The notes below the pieces were generated by a model, which made no database searches, was not told the origin of the DNA, and worked only from the letters and a program-made list of their open reading frames with translations. Source: Myxococcales bacterium (GTDB taxonomy: Bacteria; Myxococcota_A; Polyangia; Polyangiales; Houyiibacteriaceae). From it: DNA of 64,000 nt. Shown here one piece after another: positions 2,130-28,735 of this stretch. The position numbers were made by a program, and so were the translations under genes. How positions within the stretch are numbered: the stretch's first letter is position 1; each line of letters starts with the position of its first letter. The stretch is taken from assembly GCA_019637115.1 (NCBI GenBank), contig JAHBWH010000020.1:1-64000 (forward strand), given 5' to 3'.

Positions 2130-3707
2130 TCAAGCGCGCGCGGGCACGTGCGACATCGCGCGCTCGGCGAGCGCCGTGATCGTGAGCGATGGGTTCACGC
2201 CGGGGTTCGCGCTCACCGCCGAGCCATCGATCACGTAGAGGCCGTCGTAGCCATGCACGCGGTGCATCGCGTCGATCACGCCCTCGCTCGCGTCCTCGCC
2301 CATGCAAGCGCCGCCGAGGATGTGGGCGGTCGAAGGGATGCCGAGGAGGGTCTCGGTCATGAGCGTCATCGGCACGCCGCCGAGCTTCGCCGCGTAGCGC
2401 TCGGCGATCTCGGTCGCCTCGGGCATGAAGGCGCTCGGCGCAGGCTGGCCAGGGGCGAGCTCGCTGACGAGCCCCTCGCGGAAGCCCGTGCGCAGCCCGC
2501 GCCCGAGCCGCAGGCGGAGCGTGCTCTCGAGCGTGCGCATGTAGAGCAGGACCATCCCGTTGCGTGCCCAGTCGCGGGTGCCGAAGATCTTCGCCCACGT
2601 GATCGGGTCCTTGGCGAGCCCCGCCGCGACGCCCCGCAAGCGGGCGAGGCGCTGGGGCGCGTCGACGTGCGGCGCACCCATGAGCCGGAAGAAGCCCGAT
2701 CCCTTGCCGTAGCGCACCGGCTCGACGTGGCTGTGCTCGTCCGTGTGGAGGATCGAGGTGATCGCGATGCCCTCCGTGAGGTCGACGTCGCTGCCCTCGG
2801 GGAGCTGGATGCCGATGAGGGCCTCGTTGTTCGTGCGCACGGCGTCGCCGAGCCGGTCGGAGAGCTTCGGCAGGCCCGCGCGGTCGGCCTTCATCTTGAG
2901 GAGGAGCGGCATCGTGCCGAGCACGCCGCCCGCGAAGACGACGCGGTCGGCCGTGATGCGCTCGGCACCGCGCCCGATCGAGGCGCGGGTGTCGATGACG
3001 TAGCCGCCGCCTTCGCGTGGGGCGACGTGCACCACCTCGGTCTCGGCGCGCACCTGCGCGCCGCGACGCTCGGCGAGCCACAGGTAGTTCTTGTCGAGCG
3101 TGTTCTTGGCGCCGACGCGGCAGCCGGTCATGCACGCGCCGCAGAAGGTGCAGCCGACGCGCTCGGGACCCTCGCCGCCGAAGTAGGGGTCGGGCACTCG
3201 CTTGCCAGGCTCGCCGAAGTGGACCGCGACGCGCGTCGGGTGGAAGTGCTCCTCGCGGCCCATCTCGCGCGCGATCTCGAGCATGACGCGGTCGTGCCGC
3301 GTCTCGCGCGGGTTGGTCGCCGCGCCGAGCATCTTCAGCGCCATCTCGTAGTGCGGCGCGAGCTCGCGCTCCCAGTCCGCGAGGTGGCCCCACGAGGGCT
3401 GCGCGAAGAACTCGCGCGAGGGCGTCGGCAGGGTGTTGGCGTAGGTGAGCGATCCGCCACCCACGCCGACGCCGGAGAGCACGGTGACGTGCTCGAAGAA
3501 GGACATCTGGAAGATGCCGCGCAGGCCCGCCGCGGGCTGCCACATCCAGCGCCGCAGGTCCCAGTTGTTCTTGGCGAAGTCCTTCGTCTCGAAGCGGCGG
3601 CCCTTCTCGATGACGAGCACCCGCCAGCCCTTCTCCGCGAGCCGCAAGGCGCTGACGCTCCCACCGAAGCCGCTGCCGATGATGACGAAGTCGAAGTCGC
3701 TCTTCAT
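2130..3707 (-). CDS. GMC-family oxidoreductase (cholesterol oxidase-like)
   Basis: 525 aa flavoprotein. The N-terminus has the FAD Rossmann motif IIGSGFGGS (residues 8-16), and the C-terminus has the GMC signature YVIDGSAVSANPGVNP, where the Asn-Pro replaces the His-Asn pair of some members. A Cys cluster (CTFCGACMTGC) near residues 190-200 followed by AKNTLDKNYL is typical of the ChoD/cholesterol-oxidase branch. The family oxidises alcohols, often sterols, passing electrons to oxygen or a carrier; the substrate here is inference. The start is the Met four residues before the FAD fold, rather than the much longer upstream frame, which has shadow-type composition. No signal peptide is seen, so it is probably cytoplasmic or membrane-associated. 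It stands alone. Confidence 0.9.
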   Translation of the reverse strand: MKSDFDFVIIGSGFGGSVSALRLAEKGWRVLVIEKGRRFETKDFAKNNWDLRRWMWQPAAGLRGIFQMSFFEHVTVLSGVGVGGGSLTYANTLPTPSREFFAQPSWGHLADWERELAPHYEMALKMLGAATNPRETRHDRVMLEIAREMGREEHFHPTRVAVHFGEPGKRVPDPYFGGEGPERVGCTFCGACMTGCRVGAKNTLDKNYLWLAERRGAQVRAETEVVHVAPREGGGYVIDTRASIGRGAERITADRVVFAGGVLGTMPLLLKMKADRAGLPKLSDRLGDAVRTNNEALIGIQLPEGSDVDLTEGIAITSILHTDEHSHVEPVRYGKGSGFFRLMGAPHVDAPQRLARLRGVAAGLAKDPITWAKIFGTRDWARNGMVLLYMRTLESTLRLRLGRGLRTGFREGLVSELAPGQPAPSAFMPEATEIAERYAAKLGGVPMTLMTETLLGIPSTAHILGGACMGEDASEGVIDAMHRVHGYDGLYVIDGSAVSANPGVNPSLTITALAERAMSHVPARA

Positions 3708-3898
3708 GGACGCGCATCGTATCGCGACCAGGCCGTCGCGCCATCGGCGAACGTCACGAGCGCGGTTGCGCTCAGGCGCAGCTCCCGGATGGCCTGGCAG
3801 ATCCCCCTCGAGAGCGGATGCCTCAGGTGCAGATGCGGGGGAGGGGGGCGCCGTCCCCGCGGCCCAGGTGCTCGCCCCCGCGGCGCAGGTGCGCGCCC

Positions 3899-4462
3899 TC
3901 AGGTGCAGATGCAGTGCAGGGTCGAACGGGAGCCGTTCCCGCAGCCCGTGCTCGCCCCCGCGTCGTAGGTGCACATGGTCGCGCTCGGCGTGAAGGCCCC
4001 CGTGCACGACAGCCCCGCGAGCGTGCAGAGGCCGTTGCAGCTCGTGCCTCCGCCCGTGAAGACCGCCTCGCAGCGCCCAGGCTCGCGCACGCAGAGCGTG
4101 TGGCCCACGGCCGCGATCGGTCCGCAAGGGTCGTCGATGCCCGCGTCGACGCCTGCGTCTTCCATCACGCTCGCGTCCTCGGGCTCCCCTGCGTCGTCCG
4201 GCGGCGCGTCGGTGGGGACCACCGCGTCCTCGGGGCGCGCGTCCTCGGGGCCCGCGTCGACGGGGCCCACATCGACGGGAGGGACGCTCGCGTCGGATGG
4301 GGACCCTGCGTCCGACACCATGCGCGGCGGCTCGCGGCAGGTGAGCGAGACGCAGATCAGCTCGCCACGACACTGCCCGGAGTTGCGGCAATACGTGCCG
4401 GCGGTGCCGCCCTCGTCGATGCAGCCCCAGAGCACCACGATCATCGCGAGCCCCACCCTCAT
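3899..4462 (-). CDS. Cys-rich lipoprotein, paralogue A
   Basis: 187 aa. A short signal peptide ends in a lipobox-like LWGC at about residues 11-14, so it is predicted to be a lipoprotein. Next comes a Cys-rich segment (TYCRNSGQCRGELICVSLTC), a long Asp/Ala/Pro-rich linker (residues 50-110) and a second Cys-rich domain ending in CHCICT-like spacing. The paired Cys suggest disulphides, hence the periplasm or cell surface. It is clearly paralogous to the next gene, which has the same layout and many identical blocks. No function is known. A 17-bp stretch at its stop codon recurs about 78 bp downstream (3821). Confidence 0.85.
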   Translation of the reverse strand: MRVGLAMIVVLWGCIDEGGTAGTYCRNSGQCRGELICVSLTCREPPRMVSDAGSPSDASVPPVDVGPVDAGPEDARPEDAVVPTDAPPDDAGEPEDASVMEDAGVDAGIDDPCGPIAAVGHTLCVREPGRCEAVFTGGGTSCNGLCTLAGLSCTGAFTPSATMCTYDAGASTGCGNGSRSTLHCICT

Positions 4463-4544
4463 GCACGTGACGGTGCCATAGCTCCGGCCCGTCTGTCACC
4501 GGGCAGGCCCCGACAGCCCACGAGTTCGTGCCGCCAGGGGTCGT

Positions 4545-5117
4545 TCAGGGGCGCTCGCAGATGCAATGATCGGTCATCCGGTTGCCGTCCATGCACGCGA
4601 AGGCCACCGCCTCGTCGTAGGTGCACAGGCCCATGTCGTCGTCGGCGTACGACGCGGTGCAGACGAGACCGGCGAGGGCGCAGAGCGCGGCGCAGGTGTT
4701 GCCGCGGCCTTGAAAGACGGCCTCGCAGCGATCGGCCTGCCGCACGCAGAGCAGGTGTCCCGCGTCCACGATGGGCTCACAAGGATCGGCCGGCCCGGCG
4801 TCGGGTGCGCCTGCGTCGACCCCCGCGTCCGTGGCGTCCGCGTCGACGTCGGCGTCCATCAACGGCGCGTCGACGACCGCCGCGTCGACGACCGCCGCGT
4901 CGCGGGGCTCCGACGTGCCCCCGTCCGCGGGCGCGGCCGCGTCGGGCACGCCCTCGCTCGCACGCGGCGCCTCGCGGCAGACGAGCGAGACGCAGATCAA
5001 CGCGCCGCGGCATTGCCGCGAGTCACGGCAATACGTCCCTGCGGATCCGCCTTCGTCGACGCAACCCAGCAGCGTCATCGCGATCGCGATCGCTCTCACC
5101 CGCGTCACCCCCACCAC
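4545..5117 (-). CDS. Cys-rich lipoprotein, paralogue B
   Basis: About 190 aa. The lipobox TLLGC follows a short hydrophobic stretch, so true translation may start at the GTG or Met a few codons in. It shares with the downstream gene the block DEGG(S/T)AGTYCR, the LICVSLVCRE segment, an Ala/Asp linker and the terminal Cys-rich domain ending CICERP. Tandem duplication is the simplest origin. The linker carries an exact short duplication (AAVVDAAVVDA), a sign of slippage. The two genes lie 82 bp apart on the same strand and could be co-transcribed. Function unknown; predicted to be exported and lipid-anchored. Confidence 0.85.
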   Translation of the reverse strand: MVGVTRVRAIAIAMTLLGCVDEGGSAGTYCRDSRQCRGALICVSLVCREAPRASEGVPDAAAPADGGTSEPRDAAVVDAAVVDAPLMDADVDADATDAGVDAGAPDAGPADPCEPIVDAGHLLCVRQADRCEAVFQGRGNTCAALCALAGLVCTASYADDDMGLCTYDEAVAFACMDGNRMTDHCICERP

Positions 5118-5141
5118 GGTGACACGCGCGAGCGCGACCTG

Positions 5142-8100
5142 TCACGAAGCTTGGTGCTCGCCCCCTCGTGCGACCGGCGGGGCGGCGTCGCGCATCCGCT
5201 CGAGGACGCGACGCCACCGCTCCACGGGGCTCACGCCCGGCGTGGGCGCCTCCGCTTCGCTCGCCGCCGCGAAGCGGCGCCGCAGCTTCGGCCATGCCCA
5301 CGCCGCCGCGGTCGCGACGCTGGCGGCGCCCGCGGCCTGCGCGAGCCCGACCGGACCGAGCGGACGGCTCCCGAAGAAGAGGCTCGTCGCCGGCGTCTCC
5401 ACGATGGCGAGCAGCGCGGCGAGGCTCCCGAGCCCGGTCGCGAGCACGAAGGGGCTGCGTCCCCCCGAGACGAGCGTCTGCCCAAGCTGCGCGCCCACGA
5501 GCGCCAGGAGTCCCACGGTGTCGGCGCCCCGGCGGTCGCCCGTCGCGCGCGCCAGGAGCCAGGCGAGCGTCGCGGCGGTGCCCGTGATCACGCCGCGTTC
5601 GACGATGTCGCGCTCGAGGGCATCACCGAGCGAGGCCTCGGGCCCCTCCTCGAGCAGCTCCTCGGGCGTCACGCTCGAAGGCGGGCGCAGGGCGACCGCG
5701 AGCGCAGGGAGGGCGTCGGTGAGCAGGTTCACCAGCAACAGCTGCCGCGCGTTGAGCGGCGAGCGCCCGCCAATGAGACCGCCGGCGAGCGTAAAGCCGA
5801 TCTCGCCGAGGTTGCCGCCCACGAGGAGCGCCACCGCCTCGCGCACGCTCCGCCAGAGCGCCCGCCCCTCGAGCACCGCCGCCACGATGCTCTCGACGCG
5901 ACCATCGGCGACGACCAGGTCGGCGGCGTGCCGGGCGGCGCCCGTGCTGGCGTGACCGAGCGCGATCCCCACGTCCGCGAGCCGGATCGCCTGCGCGTCG
6001 TTCGCGCCGTCGCCGGTCATGGCGACGACCTCGCCGGAGGCCTTGAGCGCGCGGACGATGCGCACCTTCTGGCTCGGCGTGACGCGCGCGAAGACCCGCA
6101 CGCGCTCGATGCGCGCGACGAGCTCGACGTCCGAGAGCCCGTCGAGCTCTGGGCCCGTGATGACGGTCGGCAGCTCGCCATCGAGCGCGAGATCACGCGC
6201 GATCGCCGCCGCGGTGGTGGGGTGATCGCCCGTGATCATCAGGGTCGTGACGCCCGCGCGGCGGAGCTCGTCGATGGCGGACTTCGCGGTCGGGCGCACC
6301 GGGTCCGCGATGCCCACGAGACCGCGGAAACGCAGGCCGCGCACCGCGTCGTCGGCGAGCTTGCCATCCGCGAGCTGTCCGTCCGCGATCGCGAGCACGC
6401 GCAGCCCCCGCCCGGCGAGCGAGGCGGCGGCGGCGTGGAGCCTCTCGCGGGCGACGGCGTCGAGGGGCTCTTCGACGTCGTCGTGGATCCACCGCGTGCA
6501 ACGAGCGGCGATCACCTCGGGCGCTCCCTTCACGTGCAGGCGCCCACCGTCCTCCCAGAGCGCATGGTACCCGCGCGCCGGCTCGAAAGGCAGCTCGCCG
6601 CGGATGCGAAGCGTCTCGTGCACGTCGACGCCTGCGCGCGTGCCGGCGTCGACGAGCGCTTGGTCCGTCGGGTGCGGCAGCGGGCCGTCGGCCTCGCGCG
6701 GCGGGGTCGCACGCAGCGCGACGCGGAGCACGCTGCGCAGCCCTTCGTCGAGCGACTCGGGTGCGGCCTCGCGCTCACCGTCATGCACGAAGCGGACGCT
6801 CAGCTTACCTGCGGTGAGGGTGCCCGTCTTGTCGGCGCAGAGCACGGTCACGCGGCCGAGCGCCTCGATGGCGCGAGGGTTGCGGACGATCGCGCCGCGC
6901 TCGCTGAGGCGCTTGGCCGCCGCGAGCTGCGCGCTCGTCGCGATGAGCGGCAGCCCCTCGGGCACCGCGGCGACGGCGAGGCTCACCCCGGCGCTCACGA
7001 TCTCGGGCGGCGCCACGCGCTGGCGGGCCAACCCCGCGAGGATGACCGCCGCGCCGGCCCCTGCGGCGAGCGGCGCGGTCAGCGACGTGAGCGCGTCGAG
7101 CCGCGCCTCCACCCCGCCGGCCTCACCGACCTCGACGTCCGCGAGCCCTCGCTCGGCCTCGGTCTCCTCGCCCACCGCGGTGACGACGAACACCGCCTCG
7201 CCCGCCGCGACCACGGTCCCCGCGTAGAGCATGCAGTGACGCTCGGCGACTGGGGCACCGAGCGCCACCGCCGGGACGCGCTTGCGGACCGGCACCGACT
7301 CTCCCGTCAACGAGGCCTCGTCGACCTCGAGCCCCTTCGCCCCGAGCAAGCGGCCGTCGGCGGGCACGACCTCACCCGCGTCGAGCTCGACCACGTCGCC
7401 GGGCACGAGCTCGTCGGTGGCGACCTGTGTCAGCACGCCACCCCGCCGCACGCGCACCGTGCGCTGCTCCTCGGCGAAGAGCTCGCGCAGATCACGCTCG
7501 GTGCGAAAACGCTGGCCGACGCCGAGCGCGGTGTTCACGCCGAGCACCCCGCCGACCATCGAGGCGTCCACGAGGCCGCCCATCAGCGCCGACAGGCCCG
7601 CGCCCGCGACGAGGATCGGCGTGAGCGGGTTCGCGAGCTCCTCCACCACCAACCCTCCGAGCCGACGCGCCCGAGACTTCGGCGCGAGGTGCCGCGGGCG
7701 CCGCGCCGCGACGGTCACCTCCGCCAGGCCCGCCGGGTCGGTCGAGAGCGCGCTGAGCACGTCGGCGGGCGACATCGTGTGCCACGCCACGTGAGGCGCG
7801 CGGTACCCCGCGGCGCCGGGCTTGTAGACCTGGTCGGCGAGCCGGATGCCGTTGCCCATCGCGAGGATCTGCGTCGCGTGCGCGGCGAGCATGACGCGGC
7901 GTACGGTGCGCGCCTCGAGCCCGCCGAGCGCGAGCAGCACGCTGGTCGCGAGCTCGACGCCGGCCATCTGGACGGCTTGCGACGAGGCATCGCGGGCCGC
8001 TCGGGTCGCGTCGACGAGGATTCGCGCGTCGCGCAGACCATCGGCGCAGATCAGGTCCGCGCAGAAGGGCGCGGGCCCCGCCGAGGGCATCACGCCGACA

Positions 8101-27345: not shown

Positions 27346-28014
27346 GTGATCTCGCTCCCCACCACCGACGTCCTCGGACCGCTGAATGCAGTCGAGCAGA
27401 AATTCGCACCACCAGTGCTCTGGCTCCTCGGTGACCAGAATCTGCTCTCACGCCACCCGCGCGTGGCGATCGTCGGGACACGTCGGCCAAGCGCGGACGG
27501 TGAGCGACGTACGAAACGACTCGTACGCGAGTTGGTGCAAGCGAACGCGGTCGTCATCAGCGGACTCGCCCAAGGCATCGACACCATCGCGCACACTCAC
27601 ACGCTGGCACGTGGAGGAGGGACCGTTGCAGTCCTGGGTACGCCGCTCGACGAGGCATCCCCGATGGCGAACGCCGCTCTCCAACGAACGATCGGGGAGC
27701 GCGGGCTCCTGGTGTCGCAGTTCGCCCCGAGCTCAGTGGTGACGAAGGGCAATTTCCCTCAACGAAACCGAACGATGGCCTTGGTGTCCGACGCCACGAT
27801 CATCGTCGAAGCCGGGGCGACGAGCGGCACGGTGTCGCAAGGCTGGGAAGCGCTGCGGTTGGGCCGCCCCTTGTTCCTGTTACAATCGCTCGTCGACGCC
27901 GGCCATCCTTGGCCAGCCACGATGATCGAGCATGGCGCGTTCGTGTTGAACGACGTGCAGGAGGTTCTCGAAGTCCTCCCAACGGACGACATCCGTGCCG
28001 CCGCCGCGTTCTGA
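27346..28014 (+). CDS. stand-alone DprA-like Rossmann protein
   Basis: 222 aa from the GTG at 27346. The DprA/SMF Rossmann core is nearly complete: VAIVGTRRPSADG, SGLAQGIDTIAHTHTLARGG, TVAVLG, NFPQRNRTMALVSDATIIVEAG and SGTVSQGWEALRLGRPLF. In DprA this domain binds single-stranded DNA and loads RecA. Both the N-terminal SAM-like and C-terminal winged-helix domains of canonical DprA (about 290-380 aa) are missing, so only the core is present. The gene ends 20 bp inside the phosphoribosyltransferase gene, so the two are certainly co-transcribed. GC here is visibly lower than in the flanks and codon choice is more varied, as after horizontal transfer. It is probably not the housekeeping dprA. 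Confidence 0.88.
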   Translation: MISLPTTDVLGPLNAVEQKFAPPVLWLLGDQNLLSRHPRVAIVGTRRPSADGERRTKRLVRELVQANAVVISGLAQGIDTIAHTHTLARGGGTVAVLGTPLDEASPMANAALQRTIGERGLLVSQFAPSSVVTKGNFPQRNRTMALVSDATIIVEAGATSGTVSQGWEALRLGRPLFLLQSLVDAGHPWPATMIEHGAFVLNDVQEVLEVLPTDDIRAAAAF

Positions 28015-28645
28015 GCTCCGGTTCGCCTCCTTTCTCTCGTACGTGCCGCGTGCGAGCGGACAGCTCGCAGCAGCCAAGAACTTCGTGGTCGCGCTCAAGG
28101 AGAACCGCGCGTCGGCGCCGACCGGCGAGACGGCCTCGGTCCGGGTCGCGCGACGCCTTCGCGAGCGTGACGACGTGCCGTTCGTGGAGACGTTCTTGGG
28201 AGGGGACCGCGTGCTCGTTCCAGTTCCGCGAAGCGGCCTGAGCCGACCGGGCGACCTGTGGCCAGCTTTCGAGATCGCGTCGGGTCTTCACCGCGAGGGT
28301 TTCGGCCACAGTGTCTTGCCGTGCTTGAAGCGGGTGGTCCCAGTGCGCAAGGCCGCCACTTCGCTCTCGACGCACCGTCCGAAGGCTCGTCTTCACCTCG
28401 ACAGTTTGGCCGTGGTCGCTCCGCTCTCGCTACCGGGCCGAGTGACTCTGGTGGATGACGTCGTAACGCGCGGCGCTCAGCTCTTCGGTGCCGCGTGGAA
28501 GCTCTGGACCGCGCGCCCTGACCTGGACGTGCTCGCGTTCGCCGTGGTTCGGACCGTGAGCAACGCCGACGAGTTCGTGGGCATCGCGGACCCCCGCGTC
28601 GGCAACATCACGTGGCACGACGAGGAGTGTCGACGCCGTCCCTGA
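27995..28645 (+). CDS. phosphoribosyltransferase-like protein (ComF-like)
   Basis: 216 aa. The PRPP-binding loop is VTLVDDVVTRGAQ (near residues 149-161), preceded by the hydrophobic strand; upstream VPVPRSG is the PPi-loop-like segment of ComF-type enzymes. The N-terminal zinc finger of ComFC is absent (one Cys only, at CLKR). It starts with GTG 20 bp inside the DprA-like gene, so the pair forms one unit. ComFC acts with DprA in natural transformation, and this fused-by-overlap pair echoes that partnership; a role in nucleic acid handling or defence is inference. Lower GC than the surroundings. Confidence 0.85.
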   Translation: MPPPRSELRFASFLSYVPRASGQLAAAKNFVVALKENRASAPTGETASVRVARRLRERDDVPFVETFLGGDRVLVPVPRSGLSRPGDLWPAFEIASGLHREGFGHSVLPCLKRVVPVRKAATSLSTHRPKARLHLDSLAVVAPLSLPGRVTLVDDVVTRGAQLFGAAWKLWTARPDLDVLAFAVVRTVSNADEFVGIADPRVGNITWHDEECRRRP

Positions 28646-28735
28646 GACGTCATACGCGTTCACCCCCCCTGACGCCTACGGCGTGATTGCTGGCACCGAT
28701 TCAACCTGCGACTGGGTGAACGCTTACGAGACGTC
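28646..28735. repeat. inverted repeat after the DprA/PRTase pair
   Basis: Left arm GACGTC...GCGTTCACCC (28646-28665), right arm GGGTGAACGC...GACGTC (28714-28735), with a 48-nt centre that holds a small ACGCC-TAC-GGCGT hairpin. It begins at the PRTase stop codon and ends 20 bp before the stop of the converging patatin gene. It may be a bidirectional terminator or the end of a transferred segment. Confidence 0.75.

What the first reader, a model, noticed from the sequence alone, without database searches (positions are those of the whole stretch)
27346..28735. Overlapping DprA-like/ComF-like two-gene module in an otherwise unrelated neighbourhood
A DprA-like Rossmann protein lacking the SAM and winged-helix domains overlaps by 20 bp a phosphoribosyltransferase of the ComF kind. 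In natural transformation, DprA and ComFC work together, so a compact stand-alone pair is suggestive. No competence genes surround it; GC falls visibly inside the two genes; and it is bounded on the right by an inverted repeat that starts at the stop codon. That profile fits a mobile module, for example a nucleic-acid-sensing or defence pair. The link between the domains is known; the role here is my inference.
Basis: partly seen in the sequence, partly recalled or inferred. Interest (0 to 1): 0.75.

Follow-up and report, generated by a model that had tools for sequence, protein, structure and literature searches.

The report
Compact ShosTA-type toxin-antitoxin phage-defence pair
Two overlapping bacterial genes, a DprA-like DNA-binding protein and a phosphoribosyltransferase, form a small, recently acquired copy of a known kind of toxin-antitoxin module (ShosTA / DprA-PRTase) that in E. 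coli protects cells from phages; it is a new member of that kind rather than a new system.

Summary
At 27346-28014 (+) lies a 222-aa DprA-like Rossmann protein without SAM or winged-helix domains; at 27995-28645 (+) a 216-aa phosphoribosyltransferase, overlapping by 20 bp. It is not the housekeeping dprA/comF, which the genome carries elsewhere. It belongs to the ShosTA / DprA-PRTase toxin-antitoxin type: PADLOC ShosA 2e-65 and ShosT 8e-10; the predicted PRTase is closest to H. pylori ComFC and solved ShosT structures. The same adjacent or overlapping pair occurs in several phyla, on plasmids and in 33 of 37 viral contigs carrying a related ShosA; none of 30 housekeeping dprA loci has it. Low GC3 and sporadic, decayed copies in relatives show it was acquired. 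The version here is compact: both proteins lack the N-terminal domains of E. coli ShosA and ShosT. The 'inverted repeat at the stop codon' is a separate 76-bp transposon (MITE) with a perfect 8-bp target duplication, not the module's border. Most likely function: the PRTase is a toxin acting on PRPP/nucleotides, and the DprA-like protein, which keeps DprA's DNA-binding residues, is its antitoxin and sensor. Function is untested for this lineage.

The parts
27346..28014 (+). shosA-like gene: 222-aa DprA-like Rossmann protein (putative antitoxin/sensor), GTG start, no SAM and no winged helix
   Evidence: PADLOC ShosA 2.3e-65, profile 92-297 of 303; PF02481 7.7e-51; below the TIGR00732 dprA cut-off; AF2 pLDDT 90, Z 27 to DprA and Z 24 to E. 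coli ShosA 8zva; tree outside housekeeping DprA
27995..28645 (+). shosT-like gene: 216-aa ComFC-like phosphoribosyltransferase (putative toxin), GTG start inside shosA
   Evidence: PADLOC ShosT 8.5e-10; AF2 model: ComFC Z 11.5, ShosT-PRPP (8zvc) Z 10.5, APRTs 8 or less
27995..28014 (+). 20-bp overlap of the two genes
   Evidence: other members overlap by 1-26 bp, once 89 bp as annotated; 20 bp in Allochromatium pALVIN01
27481..27486 (+). Arg46-Arg47 of ShosA, equivalent to DNA-binding Arg48-Arg49 of H. pylori DprA
   Evidence: alignment; mutants in PMC4489622; residues read
27745..27747 (+). Lys134 of ShosA, equivalent to Lys133 of H. pylori DprA
28214..28231 (+). PPi-loop motif LVPVPR of the PRTase
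   Evidence: L74, P76, P78 invariant in 11 homologues
28439..28483 (+). PRPP-loop motif RVTLVDDVVTRGAQL of the PRTase
   Evidence: L152, D154, D155, T158, G160 invariant in 11 homologues; ComFC has DDIITTGTTL
28652..28727 (.). 76-bp MITE-like element (inverted repeats ATACGCGTTCACCC / GGGTGAACGCTTAC), inserted after the module; not part of it
28644..28651 (.). left 8-bp target-site duplication GAGACGTC (overlaps the shosT stop codon)
28728..28735 (.). right 8-bp target-site duplication GAGACGTC

Best explanation
A compact, horizontally acquired ShosTA / DprA-PRTase toxin-antitoxin module. The phosphoribosyltransferase (ShosT-like) binds PRPP and, when unrestrained, damages the cell by disturbing nucleotide metabolism (inferred from characterised ShosT). 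The DprA-like protein (ShosA-like), translated first and in overlap with the toxin, keeps the toxin harmless and binds DNA; phage takeover or abnormal DNA upsets this balance and the infected cell stops growing or dies. Shown here: family membership, intact genes, conserved active-site and DNA-binding residues, conserved pairing and order, acquisition. Inferred: toxicity, neutralisation, trigger, phage protection.
For: PADLOC hits for both genes. The own housekeeping DprA ranks the other way: TIGR00732 193.9 versus 157.9 bits for the window protein, PADLOC ShosA 163.3 versus 218.9 bits. The predicted PRTase is closest to ComFC and ShosT crystal structures; the DprA-like model matches DprA and E. 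coli ShosA. Same two genes, same order, adjacent or overlapping, in several phyla, on plasmids and in 33 of 37 viral contigs against 0 of 30 housekeeping dprA loci. Maximum-likelihood tree: window ShosA with a Myxococcota MAG (98/91), separate from all 30 housekeeping DprAs (99/95). Low GC3 and low codon scores. Sporadic and decayed in relatives: remnants in G237, G244, G230, ShosA lost in G191. dN/dS about 0.19 between window and G191 ShosT. The DprA-PRTase system protects E. coli from T7 and lambda (PMC9122126); ShosT toxicity and ShosA action are summarised in PMC12593503.
Against: Both proteins lack N-terminal parts of the characterised E. coli pair: ShosT residues 1-173 and ShosA residues 1-94 have no counterpart, so the reported mechanism may not carry over. 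Identity to tested systems is low (PRTase 12% by structure). No defence island. An apparently intact PRTase without its antitoxin persists in G191, and similar PRTases stand without ShosA behind mobilisation genes, which is odd for an always-toxic protein.
Confidence: 0.72

Rival explanations
1. The pair is mainly a selfish stability/addiction module or a barrier to incoming single-stranded plasmid DNA, not an anti-phage system. It reached the chromosome from a plasmid and persists because losing the antitoxin is costly.
For: Closest relatives sit on plasmids next to rep/parA, other toxin-antitoxin genes or R-M genes; homologous PRTases follow a T4SS coupling protein and a MobA/MobL relaxase in three Gammaproteobacteria MAGs; DNA-binding residues are conserved in ShosA; no defence island here.
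Against: Relatives are also common in phage contigs, and the related P2-type pair gives measured protection against T7 and lambda (PMC9122126).
Confidence: 0.2
2. An ordinary or stand-alone competence pair: DprA and ComFC working together on transforming DNA.
For: Both folds are those of competence proteins; ComFC of S. pneumoniae and C. jejuni interacts with DprA (PMC9005727).
Against: The genome has its own DprA with winged helix and a ComF-like gene; the window protein scores below the dprA cut-off and lies outside the housekeeping clade; the PRTase lacks the four-cysteine Zn finger of ComFC (2 Cys in all); homologues sit on phages and plasmids.
Confidence: 0.04
3. A decaying remnant that is no longer functional, as in several relatives.
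For: Remnants and single-gene losses are frequent in Myxococcota and in 290-kb Pseudosulfitobacter plasmids; a MITE has inserted at the stop codon of the PRTase.
Against: Both frames are intact with conserved motifs; the MITE target duplication keeps the TGA stop; third-position changes dominate.
Confidence: 0.1

Closest known systems
DprA-PRTase (DprA-PPRT) system of P2-like phages (PMC9122126); Burkholderia phage Mana pair (L057)
   Same: dprA-like gene first, PRTase second, overlapping, no HAD domain in the PRTase; the same PADLOC models hit
   Different: Phage ShosA has a longer N-terminal part; the PRTase is too divergent for BLAST (no phage hit); the window's version is chromosomal in a myxobacterium
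ShosTA of E. coli (solved structures 8zva, 8zvb, 8zvc, 8zvd; 9vzo) and Pf phage PfAC02a
   Same: DprA-like ShosA plus PRTase ShosT; the PRTase fold aligns to ShosT residues 174-397
   Different: PfAC02a has the toxin first, with an N-terminal HAD domain and Zn ribbons; these are absent here, as is the N-terminal part of ShosA
PsyrTA / RqlHI
   Same: DprA-like antitoxin and a PRTase domain in the toxin (PMC4670107)
   Different: The toxin is a RecQ-like helicase fused to the PRTase; no helicase here; weaker PsyrA hit (1.9e-32) and no PsyrT hit
Competence DprA and ComFC
   Same: Folds and DNA-binding/PRPP motifs
   Different: No winged helix, no Zn finger, second copies in the genome, separate clade

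Membership tests
ShosTA / DprA-PRTase | DprA-like protein of the ShosA type | tested here: met
   PADLOC ShosA 2.3e-65; tree outside housekeeping DprA. The model alone is not specific: the own DprA also hits at 1.9e-48
ShosTA / DprA-PRTase | adjacent PRTase of the ShosT type with PRPP loop | tested here: met
   PADLOC ShosT 8.5e-10; structure Z 10.5 to ShosT; invariant DD..T.G
ShosTA / DprA-PRTase | conserved two-gene operon across unrelated replicons | tested here: met
ShosTA / DprA-PRTase | toxin neutralised by ShosA; phage protection | not testable with these tools
   needs expression and plaque assays
ShosTA sensu stricto (E. coli/Pf type) | toxin gene first, HAD (hydrolase) domain in ShosT, N-terminal extension in ShosA | tested here: not met
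   gene order A then T and short proteins here; PfAC02a has HAD and toxin first
PsyrTA / RqlHI | RecQ-like helicase fused to PRTase | tested here: not met
   216-aa PRTase only
competence DprA | score above dprA equivalog cut-off; winged helix | tested here: not met
   157.9 versus cut-off 191.15 bits; no DprA_WH
competence ComFC | four-cysteine Zn finger plus PRT domain | tested here: not met
   only two cysteines in the protein; TIGR00201 comF not hit by the window PRTase

The most novel reading that the evidence does not exclude
The compact ShosA/ShosT lineage is a distinct branch whose real business is incoming single-stranded DNA: plasmid-borne pairs police or stabilise conjugative transfer, and its PRTase has been recruited by mobilisation modules (coupling protein + MobA/MobL relaxase + PRTase), with toxicity arising from the 216-aa PRTase alone, without the hydrolase domain of E. 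coli ShosT.
Probability: 0.2. Interest if true: 0.55.

Novelty: new member of a known kind. Interest (0 to 1): 0.3.

Why it matters
It extends the ShosTA / DprA-PRTase kind to a minimal form in myxobacteria, plasmids and several phyla. If a 216-aa PRTase with no extra domain is the toxin, it isolates the catalytic core of the system, and the shared ComFC/DprA folds make it possible to ask how competence proteins and defence modules are related.

Tried and rejected
Inverted repeat as module border: rejected, it is a MITE with an 8-bp target duplication. Native dprA/comF: rejected. Defence island: PADLOC on nine flanking genes gave only generic kinase and phospholipase matches. Intrinsic terminator or sigma-70 promoter: none found. 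tRNA or Rfam RNA as integration site: none in the window. Empty-site comparison: inconclusive, because only the right flank (patatin, kinase) is conserved in relatives and the left flank is not syntenic. Single-protein ShosA search of viral contigs: nothing, while the alignment-based search found 40 loci. Full text of the primary ShosTA mechanism paper (cited as Pu et al. 2025) was not in the library; only a review was read.

Full report
Observation. Two genes on the + strand, 27346-28014 and 27995-28645, overlap by 20 bp. The first encodes a 222-aa DprA-like Rossmann protein: PF02481 at 7.7e-51 and no DprA_WH. The second encodes a 216-aa protein without a Pfam match. Its AlphaFold model (pLDDT 85) is a type I phosphoribosyltransferase, closest to H. 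pylori ComFC (7p0h, Z 11.5, 155 residues, 3.6 A) and to E. coli ShosT with PRPP (8zvc, Z 10.5, 173 residues, 3.7 A), ahead of APRT/HPRT enzymes at Z 8 or less.

Not the housekeeping pair. The same genome has a second DprA on another contig, with winged helix and above the TIGR00732 cut-off (193.9 bits), whereas the window protein scores 157.9, below it. A ComF-like gene lies on yet another contig. In a maximum-likelihood tree of 89 DprA-domain rows, all 30 housekeeping DprAs from the class, including the genome's own, form one group (99/95). The window protein groups with a Myxococcota MAG (98/91), near an Allochromatium plasmid and plasmid/viral relatives.

What it is. PADLOC names both genes: ShosA 2.3e-65 and ShosT 8.5e-10. 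The ShosA model alone is not diagnostic, because the housekeeping DprA also hits it at 1.9e-48; adjacency to a ShosT-type PRTase and the reversed score ranking are what decide. The DprA-PRTase pair of P2-like phages protects E. coli from T7 and lambda, and DprA homologues are antitoxins in shosTA, psyrTA and rqlHI (PMC9122126; PMC4670107). A review reports that ShosT is a PRTase and pyrophosphatase that disturbs purine metabolism, that ShosA binds DNA and counteracts toxicity, and that T7 Gp0.7 is a trigger (PMC12593503).

Conserved pairing. A scan of genome contigs with the PRTase alignment found 10 relatives. ShosA lies directly upstream in seven: Henriciella, two Myxococcota, two Acidobacteriota, a Gemmatimonadetes and a Gammaproteobacteria MAG, with overlaps of 1-26 bp. 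On plasmids, the pair occurs in Allochromatium pALVIN01 (the same 20-bp overlap), Paracoccus, Sulfitobacter, Pseudosulfitobacter and Chryseobacterium, often near rep/parA, R-M or other toxin-antitoxin genes. A ShosA-alignment scan of viral contigs gave 40 loci. Counting also the locus from the PRTase scan, 33 of the 37 with room for a neighbour carry an adjacent PRTase, against none of 30 housekeeping dprA loci. Two of the four exceptions have a PRTase fragment or an opposite-strand copy next door. The viral scan was seeded with ShosA itself, so it shows constancy of the pairing within this family, not its frequency among all DprA-like proteins.

Anatomy of this lineage. The window proteins are minimal. 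The DprA-like protein matches positions 92-297 of the 303-position ShosA profile and E. coli ShosA from residue 95. The PRTase matches ShosT from residue 174. PfAC02a ShosTA has the toxin gene first and a HAD hydrolase domain plus zinc ribbons in the toxin; none of that is present here. The PRPP loop (DDVVTRGAQ) and PPi loop (LVPVPR) are kept, with D154, D155, T158, G160, P76 and P78 invariant in 11 homologues. The residues that align with Arg48, Arg49 and Lys133 of H. pylori DprA, whose triple mutation cuts ssDNA binding about 75-fold (PMC4489622), are Arg46, Arg47 and Lys134. DNA binding by the protein is therefore a reasonable inference.

Acquisition. GC3 is 0.758 and 0.802 against a window median of 0.916. 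In 290 genomes of the class, few carry a PRTase of this type: G261 has the pair (58% and 38% identity); G191 has an intact PRTase (65%) but only the last residues of ShosA; G237, G244 and G230 hold fragments, G244's at a contig edge. More distant pairs occur in G112 and G227. The right flank (patatin, kinase-AAA-TPR) is conserved in the family, but the slot next to it is not: the same-genus G224 has a ParE-type toxin-antitoxin pair there. The left flank is not syntenic, so no clean empty site could be shown.

The inverted repeat. It is a 76-bp element (28652-28727) with inverted ends and a perfect 8-bp target duplication GAGACGTC. Two other copies in the genome, of 75 and 663 bp, have their own perfect 8-bp duplications, and further single ends are scattered. 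IS66-type transposases are present and one lies about 1.2 kb from such an end, which suggests but does not prove an IS66 origin. The insertion kept the TGA stop codon. It is a later event and not the module's boundary.

How it most likely works. PRTase = toxin acting on PRPP/nucleotides; DprA-like protein = antitoxin and DNA sensor; infection or abnormal DNA tips the balance (inferred from the characterised family). What speaks for caution: the missing N-terminal domains, the antitoxin-less PRTase in G191, and PRTases without ShosA behind coupling-protein and MobA/MobL relaxase genes in three Gammaproteobacteria MAGs. These leave room for an anti-plasmid or addiction role. Both readings can be tested in laboratory E. 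coli.

Verdict. The finding is real and well spotted, but the system is of a known kind. It is a new, compact member, with modest interest.

Noticed in passing
window 28644-28735; G000:C112:13408-13482; L157:1741-2403: A MITE family (75-76 bp, one 663-bp copy; ends GTACGCGTTCACCCC) with perfect 8-bp target duplications, possibly mobilised by IS66-type transposases of the same genome.
   Followed up: partly
L045, L046, L047 around 3400-6630: ShosT-type PRTase without ShosA directly downstream of a T4SS coupling protein and a MobA/MobL relaxase in three Gammaproteobacteria MAGs: a possible mobilisation-linked use of the PRTase.
   Followed up: partly
L035:9285-10121 (G191): Intact ShosT (65% identical to the window's) with ShosA lost except for about the last 15 codons: a lone 'toxin' gene.
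   Followed up: partly
L159 (Pseudosulfitobacter 290-kb plasmid; sister plasmids of the same size give the same match): Opposite decay: ShosA intact, ShosT reduced to its C-terminal half.
   Followed up: no
L062:4001-4690: Viral contig with a ShosA close to the window's relatives but no PRTase next to it: a possible phage-borne stand-alone antitoxin.
   Followed up: partly
L030:7667-8185 (same-genus genome G224): A ParE toxin with an addiction-module antitoxin occupies the slot beside the conserved patatin gene where the window has the ShosTA pair.
   Followed up: partly
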